From the IMG/VR virus record IMGVR_UViG_3300020122_000036, positions 1 to 28,623 of that record: a stretch of DNA of 28,623 nucleotides. One strand, written 5' to 3'. Made by a program: the position numbers and the translations under genes. This document shows, in pieces, positions 4,968 to 26,015 of this stretch; the stretch's first letter is position 1, and each line of letters starts with the position of its first letter. The stretch is from a virus. The notes beneath the pieces are model-generated. The model was not told the origin of the DNA, searched no databases, and saw only the letters and a program-made list of their open reading frames with translations.

Positions 4968-5489
4968 TTAAACGCCTACCCAAGTTTTGCCTAAGCGAAC
5001 GTCTGAAATTGTTCTCCGATGTACATTATACATTACTCCGATATCCGTATCTGATAAACCTAATTCTATGAAATGCCTAATATCCTTTACTTTTAATTCA
5101 GATAATTTAGCCTTATGATGTATGTCGCCTATTGCTTTTCTTAATACATGCCTAGCATGAAGTACGTTTTCACTACATGTTACCCACTCTAAATTTTCAA
5201 TAGAATTATTCAGCTTGTTACCATCCTTATGGTTTATTTGCTTTGAATTTAAAGGATTTGCAATAAAATACTTGCCAATAAGTCTATGAACATACTCCTT
5301 TGTATTAATCTTATTGCCATGTCTGAAACATACACACCAATACCCATTTGAATTAATATGAGGCTTTAACATTCTTTGAGGCTCGCTCTTGATATTATTT
5401 TCAGGCCCCATCGATTTAAATGACCTAACATTTCCATAATTAGATATCTGATATCCATTATGCTCTAATATATCCTTCCAAATTTCCAT
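4968..5489 (-). CDS. NUMOD4-HNH homing endonuclease
   Basis: A free-standing HNH endonuclease. A NUMOD4-type N-terminus (EIWKDILEHNGYQISNYGNV, residues 2-21) is followed by the HNH core with INHKDG (85-90) and NNSIENLEWVT (94-104). A C-terminal helix-turn-helix segment (LSDTDIGVMYNVHRRTISDV) should bind DNA. Such enzymes cut a phage allele lacking the gene so that repair copies it in. I chose the ATG at 5489 because the NUMOD4 domain begins there. An in-frame GTG at 5522 would add 11 unlikely residues. It stands between minor head and head-accessory genes as an extra, non-structural gene. Confidence 0.9.
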   Translation of the reverse strand: MEIWKDILEHNGYQISNYGNVRSFKSMGPENNIKSEPQRMLKPHINSNGYWCVCFRHGNKINTKEYVHRLIGKYFIANPLNSKQINHKDGNKLNNSIENLEWVTCSENVLHARHVLRKAIGDIHHKAKLSELKVKDIRHFIELGLSDTDIGVMYNVHRRTISDVRLGKTWVGV

Positions 5490-5524
5490 ATACAAATATA
5501 GTAAATTTGGCGGTATGTACACAC

Positions 5525-6424
5525 CTATTTAGAATGATATTTTAACCTAACAGCCCTATCTATCCACTCTTTAGGAACTCTCGAAGTTATAACTGGAATC
5601 AAATTATGCAAACATCGATACCCCCCTACAAATGAGAAGATTGTGTCTGAATTTGTATTTGCATTCATTCCCTGCCAGGGATAACCACACTTACCAACAT
5701 TTTTCCCTGCACCCCAATCCTGTATCTCTTTTTTATGATACCAATTCCCATGTCTTTCTTCACAAAAACAACGAGTGTCAGCAACTTCACCACCTTGGTA
5801 CTTATAAAACTCTAGTCCTAAGTCTTCGCTGATTACTTTCGTATACTGCCTGTCTGATACTGCAAATGAATCGTAAGCAACCCTTTTAACGTAACGAGTA
5901 AGTAGTCCGTCTGACTTTTCCGTATTCGTAGCAACCTCCCTAATAGCGTTCATTGCATCGGTAAACGTTCCTCCATTTGTGACAGAAGATAATAAACTGT
6001 CTTTGATAGGGGAAATTATCTGAGCCGAAACAGCATCCTGTGAAAGCAAGTCGATTGCGTTCGTTTGTGTTACCCTTAAAGTGCTTTGGTAAACGCTTTG
6101 AGGCTCGAACGTATCAATTATTTTATAGAAATAACTATTGTTGATCGTTGCCTGTGTATTAAACTCTTTTGCAAAGGACGTAAGCGATTTAATGTATTCG
6201 TCATCGATTATAACGCTTTCTAATTCGTTCGAAATGGTATTTATTAACTGAATATTCTTATTGTTAAAGACAAATTTACCGTCAACAATATCCATTTGAG
6301 ATACCAACCGTTCGGCTTCATTGAGCATATTTATTTGTGCTCGATCTGATGCCGTAACCATTTTATCCGGCACACTTGTAAGGCGTGACATCTTCTCCTT
6401 AATTATTTCGTCAAGCGTTGGCAT
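5525..6424 (-). CDS. MuF-like minor head / head morphogenesis protein
   Basis: A 299-residue protein right after the portal gene, the normal place of a Mu gpF-like minor head protein that enters the capsid and may help DNA packaging or ejection. The C-terminal third has the conserved pattern of the Bacteroidota versions: DTRCFCEERHG (216-226), then GKCGYPWQG and GGYRCLHNLIPV (267-278), in which paired Cys and His probably bind zinc. The N-terminal 200 residues are helical, as usual. The ATG overlaps the portal stop by 14 bases. The HNH gene begins just past its stop. Confidence 0.85.
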   Translation of the reverse strand: MPTLDEIIKEKMSRLTSVPDKMVTASDRAQINMLNEAERLVSQMDIVDGKFVFNNKNIQLINTISNELESVIIDDEYIKSLTSFAKEFNTQATINNSYFYKIIDTFEPQSVYQSTLRVTQTNAIDLLSQDAVSAQIISPIKDSLLSSVTNGGTFTDAMNAIREVATNTEKSDGLLTRYVKRVAYDSFAVSDRQYTKVISEDLGLEFYKYQGGEVADTRCFCEERHGNWYHKKEIQDWGAGKNVGKCGYPWQGMNANTNSDTIFSFVGGYRCLHNLIPVITSRVPKEWIDRAVRLKYHSK

Positions 6425-8213
6425 TTGTAAGAACGTTGTCTACGTTTACTTTTGCTGGATTTATTTCTAAATCCTTAGTCTTTGCCATTTGAAATAGCAC
6501 TGTTCGCTGGTCAGTTTTGCTCTTTTCTAAGAACGTCGGATCAAGTTCAATTTGTTCTTCAATAAACATTTCAATTGAAGTATGCAAAATATCTTCCCAC
6601 TTAGCTACTGTGCCGAGTGTTATTTTCTTCAATACGTCATCATTGGAAAGGCCAAGTAATCGATCACAATAGAATATCAAATCAATTATTTTTTGCCCTT
6701 CTGGATCTGTTCCAAAACGAGTTTCAAAATATTCCTTCATCAGTTTTTTCATAGCTGAGTCTGGAAGATTGGCTTCTTTAGCTTCTGAAATTTCAGTTGT
6801 CAGATCGGCATCGTTACGAAGTGCAAATGTTCTAGGTGCAGTAATTACGGGAGCTTCTGAATCATTTCCGTATCTAACGTGAACCAATACGCCTGCGAAG
6901 AACTCAAATATGCTGAATACTTGGTCTGAAATTCTTTTAATGAACGCAAACTGTTCTTCACGATCAATCATGCTTTTTAAAGCAGTATCACTTCCTTTTA
7001 CATTAGAATCAGAAACTGAAATATTAAGGATTGAAGCACCTTTATTTATGTTTCTATCTACCTGATCGGAAAGCAATTGAATAATATCAACACCTGGCCC
7101 GTAAAAACCACCTGGAGGCGTTGGCATATTGGTTTGTGTATTGAAATCAGACAGCTTAATTTCTGTAACACCTAAAACGCCTGGTCTTTGTCTTCCTGTA
7201 CCCATACAAGAAGGGCATTTATGAACGCCATCTTCGCCTCCGATATTGCCTGCTATACACTTGTTCCCGTGATCGTCTTGATAATCACATTCAGAAGTAT
7301 ATTTCCATTCTTTAGGATAGGCGCACTTAGCTTTAATTGCTGACAAATATGATTCATCAAGAGTAGCCAAGTCAAGCAAATTGACTGCCGATATGAATGA
7401 AGATTTATAAAACACTTCATCTTCTACCTGTTTTGCTTTCCCGTTTAACTTCTTGACCGGGACAACTCCTAAATCGTGCTCAAAATAAATGATTGTTTGA
7501 AACTCCCAATCTGTTTTTTTGCCCTTTTGGAATACTCTGTAAATTGTATTTGAATCGTAAATATCAAATACGATCCCATCCATTACGGTTTTATTGGCAA
7601 AGGCAACAGGGCTTTTTTCATCTGTTTCAATAACAGCATAAACACCTTCTGAATAACCTATAATTCTTTCGCATGAATAGTAATGACATACAGGCCAAAG
7701 CTCTTCACGGTCATCCACTACAGGATAAACCTCAACCCTATCAACTATTGTAGGAAGATAAGGAATGTCTATTTTAAGAGCGATTACCCCATTATTGTCA
7801 ATCTCTTTTTGAGCCGTAACAACATCACGAAAGAATGTATCTAAACTTCCGTATTTGGGATAATCTACCTCTAGGTATTGCTTTGCCGCATCGTTTCCTT
7901 TGAAGTCAATCTTCCAGTTCTGATCGTTCCAGATGCGATTTAATTCAGACTGGAACTGCTCCCAAACGATTGTAGTTGGAGTCTTAAAGTTGGCCTCTAA
8001 GTACTCATATTCTACATCTGTTTGATTGGGTGCTCGCTTTCTGAATAAGTCGGCAGGGAATATATCACCATCAGCATGGATTAGTATTCTATCCCGTTGC
8101 TTAATTGACATATCATAAACCTCAGTAAATGGCGTTACTTTTTTAGGGTCACGCTTTTTCAACTGATCAATTTTTTCTGTGATTATTTCCTGAAGCTTTT
8201 CTGGTGTCAGCAT
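6411..8213 (-). CDS. Portal protein with an inserted DnaJ-like zinc motif
   Basis: A 600-residue acidic protein of portal size. It sits before the MuF-like gene, and its long helical C-terminus (SEAKEANLPDSAMKKLMKEYF) matches portal stem/crown style. The portal ring forms the DNA channel at one capsid vertex. Residues 297-342 hold spaced Cys (297, 309, 319, 333, 336) ending in KCPSCMGTGRQRPG, like one CxxCxGxG unit of the DnaJ zinc finger. After this comes a Pro/Gly-rich loop (NMPTPPGGFYGPG) and a helix with DQVDRNINKG. The ATG at 8213 is preferred to a GTG at 8225, because it directly follows the stop of a tiny upstream ORF. Confidence 0.85.
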   Translation of the reverse strand: MLTPEKLQEIITEKIDQLKKRDPKKVTPFTEVYDMSIKQRDRILIHADGDIFPADLFRKRAPNQTDVEYEYLEANFKTPTTIVWEQFQSELNRIWNDQNWKIDFKGNDAAKQYLEVDYPKYGSLDTFFRDVVTAQKEIDNNGVIALKIDIPYLPTIVDRVEVYPVVDDREELWPVCHYYSCERIIGYSEGVYAVIETDEKSPVAFANKTVMDGIVFDIYDSNTIYRVFQKGKKTDWEFQTIIYFEHDLGVVPVKKLNGKAKQVEDEVFYKSSFISAVNLLDLATLDESYLSAIKAKCAYPKEWKYTSECDYQDDHGNKCIAGNIGGEDGVHKCPSCMGTGRQRPGVLGVTEIKLSDFNTQTNMPTPPGGFYGPGVDIIQLLSDQVDRNINKGASILNISVSDSNVKGSDTALKSMIDREEQFAFIKRISDQVFSIFEFFAGVLVHVRYGNDSEAPVITAPRTFALRNDADLTTEISEAKEANLPDSAMKKLMKEYFETRFGTDPEGQKIIDLIFYCDRLLGLSNDDVLKKITLGTVAKWEDILHTSIEMFIEEQIELDPTFLEKSKTDQRTVLFQMAKTKDLEINPAKVNVDNVLTNANA

Positions 8214-8214
8214 A

Positions 8215-8280
8215 TTACTTACCACACTTAGTGCAAGGCTTTGGTTTTGGCAACATTGGTCTTTTAATTACTCTTCCCAT
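8215..8280 (-). CDS. Possible 21-residue peptide with a CxxCG motif
   Basis: ATG at 8280, 21 codons, ending PKPCTKCGK before a TAA that lies one base before the portal ATG (TAATATG). It is strongly basic and Pro-rich and overlaps the FkbM gene end by 17 bases. The CTKCG pair looks like half a zinc knuckle. The ATG and stop spacing fit a coupled cistron, but an ORF this short can occur by chance. It could simply be a leader that couples FkbM and portal translation. Confidence 0.3.
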   Translation of the reverse strand: MGRVIKRPMLPKPKPCTKCGK

Positions 8281-8947
8281 AACATATAATGTCAAATTGT
8301 GTATGTAAACTTTCTAATGGTTCGCCGTAAATGTCTGAATAAATATAACTTATTTTATCAAGATATTCAAATAGTTCGGTTCGGCTTGTGCCGTGTGCGA
8401 TTAATGCCGATTCGTTTACTTCAAGTATTAGAATTGGTTTATGCTTTGCGATTGTTTCGAAGCCACCTACAAGCAACCTCAATTCCATGCCCTCAAGGTC
8501 TGCTTTTATTACATCTGGAATTACCCCGTAATCGGTGCAATAATTATCAATAGTTGTTGTAATGCCTTCACATGAATTTGTTTCCGCTTCTTGCTTAACT
8601 GTAGCCATTCCGAAGTTTTCATTTGGTATCACTACGGAATATCCATGAACGTGGTCTGATAAGGCTATATTACGACAAATAACGTCTTTGCCTTGCATGT
8701 TGTATTTAAGACATTCAAAAGATTCTGGGTTAGGCTCAAATGCGTGAACAACTCCTTTGCTTCTTAATGCTTCGGTAGTATCTCCAATGTATGCGCCAAC
8801 ATCTAATATGATTGAACCTTGTTTAATATGAGGCAATATTCGGGGTAGCATATTATGGTCAAAGTCCAGTCGTTTATGTTCTTCTACCCATTTACTTATA
8901 TGGGTATCGTGTTCTAATACTGCAATGCCTTCTTTAGTTATTTTCAT
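8264..8947 (-). CDS. FkbM family SAM-dependent methyltransferase
   Basis: A class I methyltransferase of the FkbM family, which usually O-methylates sugars or other small groups in glycan and polyketide pathways. In the ATG numbering the SAM-binding motif ILDVGAYIGDTT begins near residue 47, the acidic end of strand 2 is AFEPNPESFE, and KADLEGMELRLLVGG near 148-162 is the family's conserved 'D-EG-E' segment. The length, 227 residues, is normal. The ATG at 8947 overlaps the HNH stop by four bases (ATGA), better than a GTG at 8953. It ends a glycosyltransferase cassette, so the likely substrate is a sugar added by those enzymes. Substrate is inferred. Confidence 0.9.
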   Translation of the reverse strand: MKITKEGIAVLEHDTHISKWVEEHKRLDFDHNMLPRILPHIKQGSIILDVGAYIGDTTEALRSKGVVHAFEPNPESFECLKYNMQGKDVICRNIALSDHVHGYSVVIPNENFGMATVKQEAETNSCEGITTTIDNYCTDYGVIPDVIKADLEGMELRLLVGGFETIAKHKPILILEVNESALIAHGTSRTELFEYLDKISYIYSDIYGEPLESLHTQFDIICYGKSN

Positions 8948-9459
8948 GCCCACTCAAATTTATATCCATGTGCCATAGTTCTATTTCCTGCCAATACAGA
9001 AGAAATATTTGAACATCCTATATTTAATTTTCTTGCAGATTCTCTAATTGAACCATAGATGCCAATCACTATATTGTCCTTTAATACTTTAACTGATTTT
9101 GACCTGTTATGTTCTGCCCCAAATTTGCCAATCATTGGATTATAGTTGGATTTAAGAACATCAACAGAATGTCTTGAATTTTCTTGAACAGTACACCATT
9201 CTAAATTTTCAATTCTATTGTCGTGTCTAGCTCCGTTTTTATGATTTATATATGGTTTGTTTTGAGTATTTTCAATAAATGTTTCAGCAACTAGCCTGTG
9301 AACCATATAATCCCTAACTTTATTCTTTCCATTATTTAATGAAAACCTTTTATATCCACTAGAATTATCCCTTCCAAATGTTTCGTACATTGTTTTAGTA
9401 TATCTCACACGTCCGTCTGGATGTGCTTCGATTGGCAATGTTGGATGTTTTTCCCACAT
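8944..9459 (-). CDS. HNH homing endonuclease with C-terminal NUMOD1 domain
   Basis: A 171-residue free-standing homing endonuclease. The HNH core shows INHKNG (71-76) and NRIENLEWCT with the preceding VHRLVAETF. The C-terminal YGSIRESARKLNIGCSNISS (about 135-154) is a NUMOD1 DNA-binding repeat. The start ATG at 9459 lies one base after the glycosyltransferase stop (TAATATG). A TTG further upstream at 9477 is less likely. Its stop overlaps the methyltransferase ATG by four bases. It therefore sits seamlessly between two sugar-modification genes and differs in domain layout from the other HNH gene in this window (4968-5489). Confidence 0.9.
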   Translation of the reverse strand: MWEKHPTLPIEAHPDGRVRYTKTMYETFGRDNSSGYKRFSLNNGKNKVRDYMVHRLVAETFIENTQNKPYINHKNGARHDNRIENLEWCTVQENSRHSVDVLKSNYNPMIGKFGAEHNRSKSVKVLKDNIVIGIYGSIRESARKLNIGCSNISSVLAGNRTMAHGYKFEWA

Positions 9460-9460
9460 A

Positions 9461-10144
9461 TTAAATAGTGTTTTCAAGTTCTTCTTTTTCTTCTGCTGAC
9501 ATTTGGCTCCATGACCAGTACTGCTTTGACCTGTTTATTCGTGGAGGCATTTCTGAAACATTGTGAAAATGGTAATTTTCTGGTTCGTGCTTCATTGAAA
9601 AGAATCCTAAAATATTAAACTCGCTAAACTGTCTGTGAGGCTGAGAAGTTGCATAGTTTTCTATATCTGGGAACATCTGTGCAAAATGCTCTAGTGTTGA
9701 CTTATGAAATGTTTGTGGTGCAATTCTCATTAGTTCGTAAGGCGCTTTTTCCTTGAAAAGTTTCTCAACTACTGGCTTCCAACATATAGCCTCTCCAACA
9801 TTTTCGTATTTGTCGTAAAGAATTACTGGCTTGTTATCATAGAAATAATCCCTTACGTCTGCCCCCGGATAGAATACAACATCGGAATCAACGAATAGTA
9901 TGTAATTGCCTTTGCAATGCTTGTATGCCTCTAATTTACTTACCTGCTGGCCTATATAATCATCCTTATAAGTCTTGCAAACAACAACCTTTTCAGCCGT
10001 TAAATGATTTAGTAAATGTTCCTGCCCTGTTGGAATACAGATTATAATTTCATCCCATCCGGTTAGGTTTTTATGTATAGATTTTAAACAGTAATTCAAC
10101 CATTTAATATCAGCGTGGTATGTGCGTATGAATATTGAAATCAT
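9461..10144 (-). CDS. Glycosyltransferase, GT-A/GT2-like, with DSD motif
   Basis: A 227-residue protein beginning MISIFIRTYHADIKWLNYCL, the first strand and helix of a GT-A nucleotide-sugar binding fold. A strand-DxD element, YILFVDSDVVFYPG, follows at residues 81-94. The DSD should bind the metal and the nucleotide-sugar phosphates. The C-terminal half has several His and aromatic residues (NYHFHNVSEMPPRI) that could bind acceptor. Length suits a compact phage glycosyltransferase without membrane segments, so it acts in the cytoplasm. It overlaps the Cys-rich gene before it by four bases. Donor sugar and acceptor are unknown. Confidence 0.85.
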   Translation of the reverse strand: MISIFIRTYHADIKWLNYCLKSIHKNLTGWDEIIICIPTGQEHLLNHLTAEKVVVCKTYKDDYIGQQVSKLEAYKHCKGNYILFVDSDVVFYPGADVRDYFYDNKPVILYDKYENVGEAICWKPVVEKLFKEKAPYELMRIAPQTFHKSTLEHFAQMFPDIENYATSQPHRQFSEFNILGFFSMKHEPENYHFHNVSEMPPRINRSKQYWSWSQMSAEEKEELENTI

Positions 10145-10341
10145 TTCTGTTCAAAGTTTACGCATCCGAAATCTTTACCTGTTCTAAGCTGGCATTCCTC
10201 ATACGTTGATGAGTATATGGTATTGTCTTTTGTTCCATCCTCTGACAATTCAGACACTGGAATACCACAATCGCCTATTGATTGAAAATGTTCATCTTTT
10301 GACCAATTTTTGCAATCCTTACAATTTCCTATAGTTATCAT
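10141..10341 (-). CDS. Small Cys-rich protein inside the glycosyltransferase cassette
   Basis: A 66-residue acidic protein with five cysteines, C7 and C10 as CKDC, then C25, C50 and C60. The spacing suggests a zinc-binding or disulfide-bonded mini-domain. Both ends overlap their neighbours by four bases (ATGA junctions), so it is made in step with the glycosyltransferases on either side. I do not recognise the family. It could be an accessory or acceptor-binding subunit of the cassette, which is only an inference from position. Confidence 0.65.
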   Translation of the reverse strand: MITIGNCKDCKNWSKDEHFQSIGDCGIPVSELSEDGTKDNTIYSSTYEECQLRTGKDFGCVNFEQK

Positions 10342-10994
10342 ATATCTTTTATCTGTGAGTTAATCAAATGAAATGCTTTTGAGCTTATTGATTCCGGCGA
10401 ACCATTCATTCCTGTTTCAATGCTAAATATTTTTGCCGTTTTCTTCCAGCTATGTAAATCGTATTGTAAATCGTGCATCTTATGAAAGATATGCGCTTTC
10501 TTTGGTCTTTCCAATTTAAAGCCTTTCTTCAAAAGCATTATCGGTAACCAGTAATCCCAGTGGCACTGACCTAAAGAAAGAAGCGTTTCAGGCAGATCAC
10601 AGTTGTCTTCGGCTAAGAAGAAAGCATCAAACCCAGATTTAAAGAACTTTGAATTTTCAATATTTTCTTTAAAATCATATCTATTAAATATAACTGGATT
10701 GCTTCCAAATATAGGCAAATCCTTTATAATAATATCTGAATTTATAATTAATCCAGCGCCTTCTTTTTTTACAATCGAAATCAATTCACTTGCAGGAACG
10801 TAATGTTTGCCGAATAGTTGCATTCCTGTTTTCTTAGGCTCAATAAATTCGACATCGTAATCCTTTTCAAGTAACCGAATTTCTGAAACATGATTGACTG
10901 AAACAATTTTCTTATCCTGTTTCTTCCAACTTTCAATTGCTTTTAGCTGGTTTTCTTTATTCTTGTGCGTAGGTGCTAGGCTTGTAATTATCAT
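10338..10994 (-). CDS. Glycosyltransferase-like protein with an NSD motif in place of DxD
   Basis: A 218-residue protein beginning MIITSLAPTHKNKENQLKAI, the first strand and helix typical of GT-A proteins. Then GAGLIINSDIIIKD follows at 79-92. The expected DxD reads NSD, so the first acid is replaced by Asn. That may still bind metal through the second acid or may mark an altered enzyme. QCHWDYWLP and AHIFHKMHDLQYD supply conserved His, Trp and Asp that could form the acceptor side. It overlaps both neighbours by four bases. It is likely a glycosyltransferase, but activity is not certain. Confidence 0.7.
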   Translation of the reverse strand: MIITSLAPTHKNKENQLKAIESWKKQDKKIVSVNHVSEIRLLEKDYDVEFIEPKKTGMQLFGKHYVPASELISIVKKEGAGLIINSDIIIKDLPIFGSNPVIFNRYDFKENIENSKFFKSGFDAFFLAEDNCDLPETLLSLGQCHWDYWLPIMLLKKGFKLERPKKAHIFHKMHDLQYDLHSWKKTAKIFSIETGMNGSPESISSKAFHLINSQIKDI

Positions 10995-11749
10995 TTACCT
11001 ACAAATTTATGTTTGTAAATCGATTGAATGTTATAATTGTTCGGACTACAAAACTTTACCAAGTCATCGTAAACTCTTTTGGATGTTATTTTTGATATAC
11101 CGAATCCGTACATAGAAAGGAAATAAGAATCTTTGTTTATTCCTGGATAATCGCAATAGTGAACATCAACTGTTGAATCTAAAGGTTCTTGAAGTGTACA
11201 CGAATGAAGCACCTCATCAGGAATCAACTTCTTTTTACCCCAGCAGTTTTTCAAGTCTTTTTTATCAAGGCGGTTGTAAAGTTCTTTAAGTTTGCTGAAA
11301 TAATTAATAACATGATTGAATCTTCTAAATGCCATTATTGAACTGTTGACATCATTGAAAGTAGGCTGGCATCCGTATTTAGCCATCTTATCAGCTTTCA
11401 TCCACCAATTTTCTTTTGTTTGTCTAATGCTATGAATCCAAAATGATTCTTTTAAAATGCGTTCAAATAAAGGTTGCGGATCTTTCAAACAAATCATATC
11501 TACATCTAAATAGATTGTATGCTCGTAAGGGGTAATTTCAAGTAAGCCTATTTTGATTAGGCACGGATCGTTTAAAAAATCATTCGGACTGAATGGTATT
11601 ATCCTGTCGATTTTGCTCATATCTATTCCATCATGGCATCCATCGGAAGCAAGGGTAATATGAACATTACAGAAACGTTTTATGGAATAAGCTAAATTTG
11701 AAGCGAACTTCGCATAAGCATTATTGCCATATGCAATAAGTAGTATCAT
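10991..11749 (-). CDS. Glycosyltransferase, GT8/glycogenin-like, with DVD motif
   Basis: A 252-residue GT-A protein. YEHTIYLDVDMICLKDPQPL at residues 75-94 is the hallmark of GT8 and related retaining transferases: a DxD (82-84) followed by a conserved loop into the next helix. The N-terminal part (MILLIAYGNNAYAKFASNLA) would bind nucleotide sugar. A later segment (NDVNSSIMAFRR) matches the 'fNsGvm' acceptor-side region in position. It is the first gene of the modification cassette, 11 bases after a terminator hairpin, and its stop overlaps the next ATG by four bases. Its own promoter was not identified. Confidence 0.85.
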   Translation of the reverse strand: MILLIAYGNNAYAKFASNLAYSIKRFCNVHITLASDGCHDGIDMSKIDRIIPFSPNDFLNDPCLIKIGLLEITPYEHTIYLDVDMICLKDPQPLFERILKESFWIHSIRQTKENWWMKADKMAKYGCQPTFNDVNSSIMAFRRFNHVINYFSKLKELYNRLDKKDLKNCWGKKKLIPDEVLHSCTLQEPLDSTVDVHYCDYPGINKDSYFLSMYGFGISKITSKRVYDDLVKFCSPNNYNIQSIYKHKFVGK

Positions 11750-11760
11750 ATATATAAATA

Positions 11761-11785
11761 AGAGAGCGCACCTAGTACGCTCTCT
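11761..11785 (-). terminator. Hairpin terminator after the candidate tail tube gene
   Basis: A perfect 8-bp stem, AGAGAGCG (11761-11768) with CGCTCTCT (11778-11785), encloses a 9-base loop. On the minus strand it is followed by TATTTATATAT, a U-rich but interrupted tail. It divides the tail genes from the glycosyltransferase cassette. Confidence 0.65.
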
Positions 11786-11801: not shown

Positions 11802-12341
11802 CTAAAAGATGCCTACAGGGGCATCATATAGTACCGGGAAAGGATCAGCTACATCTTGAGACCACTTCGCAGTAACAAGATATTGTTGCTTTTCCTTATT
11901 TGATTCTGGAATAACTAAACGAGCATTGAAAGTAACTCCTTTTTCAACCACACGAACTGCATTTTGCTCACACAAATACATACCAAAACCAGAGAATTGA
12001 GATTGGTTTAATTTGCGATAGAACTCATCATTCCCTGCGTTAACGTTGAAGTCTTTAATTTCTGCTGTATAGTCGTAACCATCGACAATAGTTTCAGATC
12101 CACAAGCAATAGGGTTTTCGCCCTCAACTGGACTAGGCTCTGGTAGATTGCCTTTGAGGCCTCCCATAATTACCATTGTGCCAGCCGTGATTGCTGCTTC
12201 AACTTGTTCTTCGTCTGTAAAATCGGTTATGCCATGATCTTCTTTTAATACAAAGGTTTTGCTAATACCACCTTTAGGATAGTAACATAAATTAGCCTCG
12301 TATTCTGGAAGGTCTTCGGGCGTACAGTTTATATATGACAT
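11802..12341 (-). CDS. Candidate major tail (tube) protein
   Basis: A 179-residue beta-rich protein in the size range of siphovirus tail tube subunits. It lies at the end of the tail block and has a strong terminator after it, as expected for a highly expressed virion protein. Segments such as DGYDYTAEIKDFNVNAGNDE and GVTFNARLVIPESNKEK look like the strands and loops of a tube-fold sandwich. Near the C-terminus the pattern QYLVTAKWSQDVADPFPVLY ends the domain. I see no diagnostic motif, and another structural role, such as a decoration protein, is possible. A gap of 108 bases upstream contains only a weak hairpin (12416-12428). Confidence 0.55.
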   Translation of the reverse strand: MSYINCTPEDLPEYEANLCYYPKGGISKTFVLKEDHGITDFTDEEQVEAAITAGTMVIMGGLKGNLPEPSPVEGENPIACGSETIVDGYDYTAEIKDFNVNAGNDEFYRKLNQSQFSGFGMYLCEQNAVRVVEKGVTFNARLVIPESNKEKQQYLVTAKWSQDVADPFPVLYDAPVGIF

Positions 12342-25409: not shown

Positions 25410-26015
25410 TTAATTTACAATTTTATAAAATGGCTTCAACATTTGAATGGTGCTACCACCAAACGAACCTTCTGTTTTCTCAATGAACTCTTCCGGCGTA
25501 TACTTTTTGCTTTCAACTCCTTTTATGAAAGAATCTCTACCCATTTGACAAGATCCAGTCAATTTATTGTGAGCAATCGAAAACTCTTCTATTGAATACA
25601 ATTCGCCTGCTTTAAATTGATCGACAAACTTTTTGATTCGCTCTTCGATTGGTAAATTATCTTCAAACTTCTCATTGGCTTCTTTGAAAGCCTGTTCGAC
25701 AGTATCGGCGTGAGCGAAGTAATTGCCAACTTTAGCAATAAAACAGTCCGTAAAGGTTAAATCAGTATTGAGTATTCGGCCTTTTGCTAGGTTGTTTCGA
25801 ATTAATTTATCAATGATTGTATTTACTCCATCTATCTTATAGACTTTGTTTTCATTAATGGTTAATACGCCGTCGCCGTCGCCGTAGCCGTTGCCGTTGC
25901 CGTTACCGTAGCCGTTGCCGTAGCCGTTGCCGTAGCCGTCGCCGTTGCCGTAGCCGTTGCCGTAGCCGTTGCCGTAGCCGTTATTTATGGATAAAAACAA
26001 CTCTATGCCTTCCAT
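25410..26015 (-). CDS. Protein with an N-terminal GYGN repeat and a conserved phage C-terminal domain
   Basis: A 201-residue protein. Residues 13-49 are an almost perfect run of GYGN/GDGN units encoded by six-base repeats. The rest resembles a module that I recall from other phage proteins with N-terminal repeats: KGRILNTDLTFTDCFIAKVG, then YFAHADTVEQAF, then LTGSCQMGRDSFIKG, ending SFGGSTIQMLKPF. The GSCQMGR and FGGS segments are the most conserved. Function of the module is not known to me. The ATG overlaps the previous gene by 13 bases. The repeat number could change by slippage. Confidence 0.7.
   Translation of the reverse strand: MEGIELFLSINNGYGNGYGNGYGNGDGYGNGYGNGYGNGNGNGYGDGDGVLTINENKVYKIDGVNTIIDKLIRNNLAKGRILNTDLTFTDCFIAKVGNYFAHADTVEQAFKEANEKFEDNLPIEERIKKFVDQFKAGELYSIEEFSIAHNKLTGSCQMGRDSFIKGVESKKYTPEEFIEKTEGSFGGSTIQMLKPFYKIVN
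25869..25982. repeat. Hexanucleotide repeat tract coding for GYGN
   Basis: About 19 near-perfect six-base units (GCCGTA, GCCGTT, GCCGTC on the plus strand) form a GC-rich island inside AT-rich DNA. Unit changes keep the reading frame, so only repeat number, not frame, would vary. Variants occur only at the third base of alternate codons. Confidence 0.9.

What the first reader, a model, noticed from the sequence alone, without database searches (positions are those of the whole stretch)
8264..11749. Glycosyltransferase-methyltransferase cassette set inside the virion gene block
Three different GT-A-like enzymes (DVD, NSD and DSD types), a 66-residue Cys-rich protein and an FkbM methyltransferase are joined by 4-base overlaps and sit between the tail tube candidate and the portal. 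The setting suggests that the sugars may decorate the virion itself, for example a capsid or tail protein, or the host surface during late expression. Methylation by FkbM would cap or mask the glycan. I have not seen this layout described for such phages.
Basis: partly seen in the sequence, partly recalled or inferred. Interest (0 to 1): 0.7.

Follow-up and report, generated by a model that had tools for sequence, protein, structure and literature searches.

The report
Phage sugar-adding cassette beside tail tube
A group of uncultured tailed phages keeps a set of sugar-attaching and methylating enzymes wedged between the genes for its tail tube and its portal, most likely to coat its own particle with a methylated sugar chain, as some mycobacterium phages are reported to do with unrelated enzymes.

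Summary
The cassette is real. Three GT-A-type enzymes, a 66-aa Cys protein and an FkbM methyltransferase lie between tail tube and portal. Eleven viral records with this portal carry the GT8-like enzyme upstream of it, next to the tube wherever visible (10/10). NSD, GT2 and FkbM genes occur in all 11 (FkbM truncated in one): after GT8 in nine, directly upstream of the terminase genes in two. Unrelated phages carry the trio there too, without GT8. Cultured Bacteroidota phages with distantly related portals have a tail protein beside the portal and no cassette. The 66-aa gene and HNH are dispensable. NSD has no Pfam or PDB-sequence match but folds confidently as GT-A. The enzymes look soluble and under purifying selection. 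Best reading: a late, cytoplasmic virion-glycosylation system, with GT8 possibly initiating, NSD/GT2 extending and FkbM methylating. The enzymes are not detectably homologous, so this is a new variant of a known kind. No biochemistry exists.

The parts
11802..12341 (-). tail tube protein (179 aa), gene before the cassette in transcription order
   Evidence: AF2 model poor (pLDDT 56), but the top VIA hits are tail-tube or Hcp-type proteins (Z up to 7.4); precedes GT8 in all 10 records whose contig reaches that far
11761..11785 (-). terminator-like hairpin (11 pairs) between tube and GT8
   Evidence: same helix in L005, L004, L003 (44/44 cells paired, one doubly changed pair); a different hairpin with a T run in L019; absent in L016
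10991..11749 (-). GT8-like glycosyltransferase, DVD motif (252 aa); possibly the initiating enzyme
   Evidence: Pfam Glyco_transf_8 below cut-off (0.0061; 0.00035 in L016; 4 of 6 members match); profile hits Skp1 galactosyltransferase and glycogenin (0.002-0.02); present in 11/11 records, D-x-D conserved
10338..10994 (-). GT-A enzyme, NSD motif (218 aa)
   Evidence: no Pfam or PHROG hit; AF2 pLDDT 93, PDB fold matches WrtF fucosyltransferase, GalNAc-T2, chondroitin polymerase, Z about 12; N-S-D invariant in 11 sequences
10141..10341 (-). 66-aa protein with 4 Cys (CxxC...C...C plus one more); accessory
   Evidence: no family hit; absent in L003 and L005; in L004 the homologous frame is interrupted by a TAG
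9461..10144 (-). GT2/DUF6492-like glycosyltransferase, DSD motif (227 aa)
   Evidence: Pfam Glycos_transf_2 8.4e-5 and DUF6492 9.6e-5, both marginally under cut-off; 8 of 8 members match DUF6492 (best 6.9e-8)
8944..9459 (-). HNH homing endonuclease (171 aa) at the GT2/FkbM junction; selfish insert, not part of the pathway
   Evidence: HNH_3 1.3e-8 and I-HmuI NUMOD-like 3.4e-9, phrog_59 1.3e-33; absent at this junction in L003 and L004
8264..8947 (-). FkbM-type SAM methyltransferase (227 aa)
   Evidence: Pfam Methyltransf_21 6.7e-16; start by homology; intact in 10 of 11 records, truncated in L016
8215..8280 (-). micro-ORF, 21 aa, Lys/Pro/Cys-rich, bridging FkbM stop and portal start
   Evidence: analogous frame in all six related phages examined
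6411..8213 (-). portal protein, gene after the cassette
   Evidence: phrog_7376 5e-19; start ATG 8213 by homology

Best explanation
A virion-glycosylation cassette of a lineage of (probably Bacteroidota-infecting) siphophages. Shown: four conserved enzyme genes (GT8-like, NSD-type GT-A, GT2/DUF6492-like, FkbM) sit in late-gene positions, GT8 always between tail tube and portal. Inferred: they are made in the cytoplasm late in infection, read through a partial terminator after the tube gene. Using host nucleotide sugars, the GT8-like enzyme (glycogenin/Skp1-transferase-like) places the first sugar on an abundant virion protein (tail tube and/or capsid), NSD and GT2 add further sugars, and FkbM O-methylates the chain. 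The glycan would alter the particle surface, shielding it or changing adsorption. The HNH gene is a homing endonuclease parked at a gene junction, and the 66-aa protein is an optional accessory.
For: Synteny in 11 viral records; the trio NSD-GT2-FkbM found elsewhere only directly upstream of terS/terL. GT8 and NSD distances track the portal's (Mantel r 0.87 and 0.94; 0.82 and 0.88 without the three closest relatives), i.e. long co-inheritance with the structural block. dN/dS mostly about 0.05-0.15 within the closest clade. GT-A fold of NSD. Conserved D-x-D-type motifs. No membrane segments, fitting cytoplasmic acceptors such as virion subunits. Precedent with the same composition and a similar position, in which the enzymes are reported to modify capsid and tail tube.
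Against: No glycan has been measured. No Ser/Thr-rich tail, a plausible acceptor, was seen on tube or capsid. No sequence homology to the Corndog-type enzymes, so the precedent is by analogy. In group B phages (L011, L017) the trio occurs without a detectable GT8 (fragments), so GT8 may not be the only possible initiator. The order of action is inferred only from gene distribution and weak family analogy.
Confidence: 0.66

Rival explanations
1. The enzymes modify the host surface late in infection (a glycan or lipid-linked precursor), preventing superinfection or re-adsorption of progeny to debris.
For: Glycosyltransferases of temperate phages are known to change host serotypes (stated in PMC12619734); FkbM and GT2 families also act in cell-surface polysaccharide pathways (general knowledge).
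Against: No membrane-spanning segments in any cassette protein, unlike gtrA/gtrB systems; linkage to virion genes rather than to lysis or early genes.
Confidence: 0.17
2. The cassette hypermodifies phage DNA by glycosylating modified bases.
For: Phage glycosyltransferases can do this (Pyle et al. 2024, cited in PMC12619734); in some phages the trio sits next to terminase genes.
Against: No thymidylate-synthase/dCMP-hydroxymethylase family gene (PF00303) in 7 records (some are fragments); the GT8 gene is always beside tail tube and portal, not replication genes.
Confidence: 0.05
3. The cassette is a moron-like passenger island kept by mobility (the HNH endonuclease) rather than by a virion function.
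For: HNH genes sit at several junctions (window 8944-9459 and 4968-5522, L005 5369-5866, L011 6489-7004); the trio occurs at two positions and in unrelated phage lineages; GT8, NSD and portal show conflicting relationships within the closest clade.
Against: GT8 at the same place in 11/11 records while HNH insertions vary; enzymes under purifying selection; GT8 and NSD co-diverge with the portal.
Confidence: 0.1

Closest known systems
Cluster O (Corndog, Firecracker, Dylan) mycobacteriophage glycosylation genes
   Same: one O-methyltransferase and three glycosyltransferase genes with short overlaps inside the virion block and adjoining the portal gene
   Different: there between portal and capsid protease, here between tail tube and portal; TylF/Methyltransf_24 MTase and GT25/GT2-like enzymes instead of FkbM and GT8/NSD/GT2; no detectable homology; mycobacterial host
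Caudoviricetes sp. MW202462 (Manatee Spring), small GT + FkbM upstream of terminase
   Same: a small GT gene overlapping an FkbM gene, a few genes upstream of the terminase and structural genes; FkbM 30% identical
   Different: one GT only, of another type; not between tube and portal
B40-8-like Bacteroidota siphophages (PDS1, TCUEAP2, P2559Y, P2559S)
   Same: distantly related portal (about 20-22% identity; hhalign probability 97.5%) directly downstream, or one small gene away, of a putative major tail protein
   Different: no glycosyltransferase or FkbM gene at that junction

Membership tests
Corndog-type virion glycosylation operon | O-methyltransferase plus several GTs within the virion structural block | tested here: met
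Corndog-type virion glycosylation operon | homologous enzymes | tested here: not met
   blastp, hmmsearch and hhalign of all four enzyme families against Firecracker gp33-36: nothing significant
Corndog-type virion glycosylation operon | glycan on capsid or tail tube protein | not testable with these tools
   needs mass spectrometry
Glycosyltransferase family 8 (gene 10991-11749) | Pfam PF01501 above gathering score | tested here: not met
   0.0061, 16.6 bits against cut-off 24.3; best member 0.00035, still below. 'GT8-like' only
Glycosyltransferase family 8 (gene 10991-11749) | D-x-D motif | tested here: met
   conserved in 11 sequences (D-V-D or D-A-D)
GT2 / DUF6492 (gene 9461-10144) | Pfam match above gathering score | tested here: inconclusive
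   PF00535 23.0 vs 23.3 and PF20102 22.0 vs 22.9 bits; 8/8 members match DUF6492, best 6.9e-8
GT-A glycosyltransferase fold (gene 10338-10994) | GT-A fold over most of the chain with a metal-site-like acidic motif | tested here: met
   AF2 pLDDT 93; Z about 12 to GT-A enzymes over residues 1-206; N-S-D in place of D-x-D
FkbM methyltransferase | Pfam PF05050 above gathering score | tested here: met
   6.7e-16, 59.3 bits against 22.7
HNH homing endonuclease | HNH_3 plus NUMOD-type domain, insertion absent in relatives | tested here: met
gtr serotype-conversion cassette | membrane proteins GtrA/GtrB and membrane GT | tested here: not met
   no 19-residue stretch with mean hydropathy above 1.2 in any cassette protein
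DNA-hypermodifying glycosyltransferase system | thymidylate synthase/hydroxymethylase homologue | tested here: inconclusive
   none in 7 records, some of which are fragments

The most novel reading that the evidence does not exclude
An entire lineage of Bacteroidota siphophages obligately glycosylates its virion: the GT8-like enzyme between tail tube and portal initiates glycosylation of the tube, and a mobile, recombining NSD-GT2-FkbM extension module with two alternative positions (after GT8, or upstream of terminase) sets the glycan structure. This would be virion glycosylation arisen independently of the mycobacteriophage systems.
Probability: 0.4. Interest if true: 0.65.

Novelty: new variant of a known kind. 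Interest (0 to 1): 0.5.

Why it matters
If right, enzymatic glycosylation of phage particles has arisen independently outside the mycobacteriophages with the same recipe (several GTs plus an O-methyltransferase, beside the portal). That would make it a general phage strategy, with a conserved gene arrangement that can be searched for, and a test of what phage-particle glycans are for where shielding from an animal immune system is not at issue.

Tried and rejected
No solved structure matched NSD or tube by sequence. tblastn of the three GTs against 50,697 phage records found nothing; only FkbM has distant matches. A genome-contig scan with GT2 found nothing; with NSD only four weak Planctomycetaceae loci, 23-28% identity, without the other cassette genes. 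Sequence homology between tube179 and the tail protein beside the portal of B40-8-like phages was not detected; equivalence is by position only. A Bacteroidota-like -7 promoter motif was not enriched in the window. The 66-aa protein had no match in phages at E 1. The idea that the window's FkbM was recently imported from the L003/L004 lineage was dropped: the W-L004 dS for FkbM (1.37) resembles that of the tube (1.16) and the MuF-like gene (1.37), so the odd allele is that of L005. The hairpin's covariation is weak: 4 sequences, one doubly changed pair, 27/500 shuffles reach the score. Freeman et al. 2023 is not in the library, so its result is quoted second-hand.

Full report
WHAT IS THERE. 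The window is an IMG/VR virus record of 28,623 bases, most likely with every gene on the - strand. In transcription order the region reads: tail tube (12341-11802), hairpin (11785-11761), GT8-like DVD enzyme (11749-10991), NSD enzyme (10994-10338), 66-aa Cys protein (10341-10141), GT2/DUF6492-like DSD enzyme (10144-9461), HNH homing endonuclease (9459-8944), FkbM methyltransferase (8947-8264), a 21-codon micro-ORF (8280-8215), portal (8213-6411). The HNH gene was missed, so the third glycosyltransferase and FkbM are not directly joined.

IDENTITY OF THE ENZYMES. FkbM is a clear Pfam match (6.7e-16). The DSD enzyme is marginal for GT2 and DUF6492, but all eight family members match DUF6492. The DVD enzyme is only GT8-like: below Pfam's cut-off, with a profile match around the DVD motif to the Skp1 galactosyltransferase and glycogenin at 0.002-0.02. 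The NSD enzyme has no Pfam, PHROG or PDB sequence match, but AlphaFold2 with eight sequences gives pLDDT 93 and the model is a GT-A fold (WrtF fucosyltransferase, GalNAc-T2, chondroitin polymerase; Z about 12 over nearly the whole chain). The neighbour called tail tube has a poor model (pLDDT 56), yet its top structural matches are tail-tube or Hcp-type proteins (lambda V, SPP1, 80alpha; Z up to 7.4), so the assignment is likely, not proven.

CONSERVATION. Relatives were collected with portal, NSD, GT2 and GT8 queries. Eleven viral records, counting the window, carry this portal (39-72% identical to the window's). All 11 have the GT8-like gene just upstream of the portal region, and in the 10 whose contig reaches it the tube gene precedes GT8. 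In nine (window, L005/L002, L003, L004, L016, L019, L054, L057, L058) the order is GT8-NSD-GT2-FkbM-portal, with FkbM reduced to its C-terminal part in L016. In two (L059, L060) GT8 stands alone there, and NSD-GT2-a second methyltransferase (Methyltransf_24)-FkbM lies immediately upstream of a small gene (probably the small terminase subunit) and the large terminase gene. Two other phages without detectable tube or portal homologues (L011 and its identical copy L010; L017, a short fragment) have NSD-(HNH in L011)-GT2-FkbM in that same pre-terminase position and no detectable GT8. The set is what pattern scans found and is not exhaustive; several records are fragments.

NOT ANCESTRAL TO THE JUNCTION. 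In cultured phages with distantly related portals (Croceibacter P2559Y and P2559S, Parabacteroides PDS1, Elizabethkingia TCUEAP2) a putative major tail protein sits directly, or one small gene, upstream of the portal with no sugar enzymes (an unannotated faecal record shows the same). So the cassette looks like an insertion at an older tail-protein/portal junction in this lineage, though the tail proteins are equivalent by position only. These hosts suggest, but do not show, that the window's host is a Bacteroidota bacterium.

EVOLUTION. Pairwise dN/dS within the closest clade is mostly about 0.05-0.15 for the enzymes, like the structural genes, with dS near saturation. GT8 and NSD distances follow the portal's (Mantel r 0.87 and 0.94; still 0.82 and 0.88 without the three closest relatives), GT2 and FkbM less so (0.44 and 0.55, not significant, in that reduced set). 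GT2 of the window is 59-62% identical to that of group B phages, whose tube and portal are not detectable, but 42-48% to several same-lineage phages: exchange of GT2 between lineages is likely. Within the closest clade GT8 supports W+L003 (10 amino-acid sites, against 0 for W+L005), while NSD and portal support W+L005 (16:3:1 and 81:2:6). The cassette therefore recombines, as expected for enzymes that diversify a surface structure (inference).

DISPENSABLE PARTS. The 66-aa protein is absent from L003 and L005, and the homologous frame in L004 has an in-frame TAG. HNH endonucleases sit at different junctions in different phages. L005 has an HExxH protein (SprT-like, weak) at the GT2/FkbM junction instead.

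EXPRESSION. A strong hairpin follows the tube stop codon in window, L005, L004 and L003; L019 has a different one followed by a T run; L016 has none. I infer that it is a partial terminator that keeps enzyme levels below tube levels.

MECHANISM. Soluble enzymes, late position, constant proximity of GT8 to the tube, and the precedent below make a virion protein the most likely acceptor. GT8 as initiator is suggested by its presence beside the tube in every record and by the weak glycogenin/Skp1-type match; NSD and GT2 as extenders and FkbM as capping methyltransferase follow from family knowledge. None of this has been measured. DNA modification is unlikely: no thymidylate-synthase-family gene in seven records.

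COMPARISON WITH THE KNOWN. Cluster O mycobacteriophages have an O-methyltransferase, two glycosyltransferases and a putative N-acetylglucosaminyltransferase between portal and capsid protease; the enzymes were found in infected cells but not in virions, and capsid modification was proposed (PMC4351075; Firecracker and Dylan records). Later papers cite Freeman et al. 2023 for modification of capsid and tail tube (PMC11600133; PMC12619734); the original is not held. Sequence and profile comparisons found no homology between the two enzyme sets. The arrangement is thus a new, probably convergent, variant of a known kind.

Noticed in passing
window 8280-8215 (-); L002, L003, L004, L019, L016 at the same junction: A conserved Lys/Pro/Cys-rich micro-ORF of 18-32 codons bridges the FkbM stop and the portal start (e.g. 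MGRVIKRPMLPKPKPCTKCGK) in all six phages examined. It may be a real microprotein or a translational coupler.
   Followed up: partly
window 11785-11761 (-): Conserved terminator-like hairpin between tail tube and GT8, retained in four phages, with a different one in L019.
   Followed up: partly
window 4968-5522 (-), L002 2884-3441, L005 5369-5866, L011 6489-7004: HNH homing endonuclease genes at several different gene junctions, including one between NSD and GT2 in an unrelated phage.
   Followed up: partly
L004 9410-9637: The frame of the 66-aa Cys protein carries a single in-frame TAG: decay, or possibly stop-codon recoding in that phage; not resolved.
   Followed up: no
L019 7690-8241; L061 4964-5524; L062 3335-3895: An additional methyltransferase (Methyltransf_24, the Pfam family also matched by the Corndog-type O-methyltransferase; weak in L019) joins the cassette in three relatives.
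   Followed up: partly
window 25410-26015 (-): Weak match to TrAA12 (PF22807, 1.4e-5, below cut-off) over 40 residues; function unclear.
   Followed up: no
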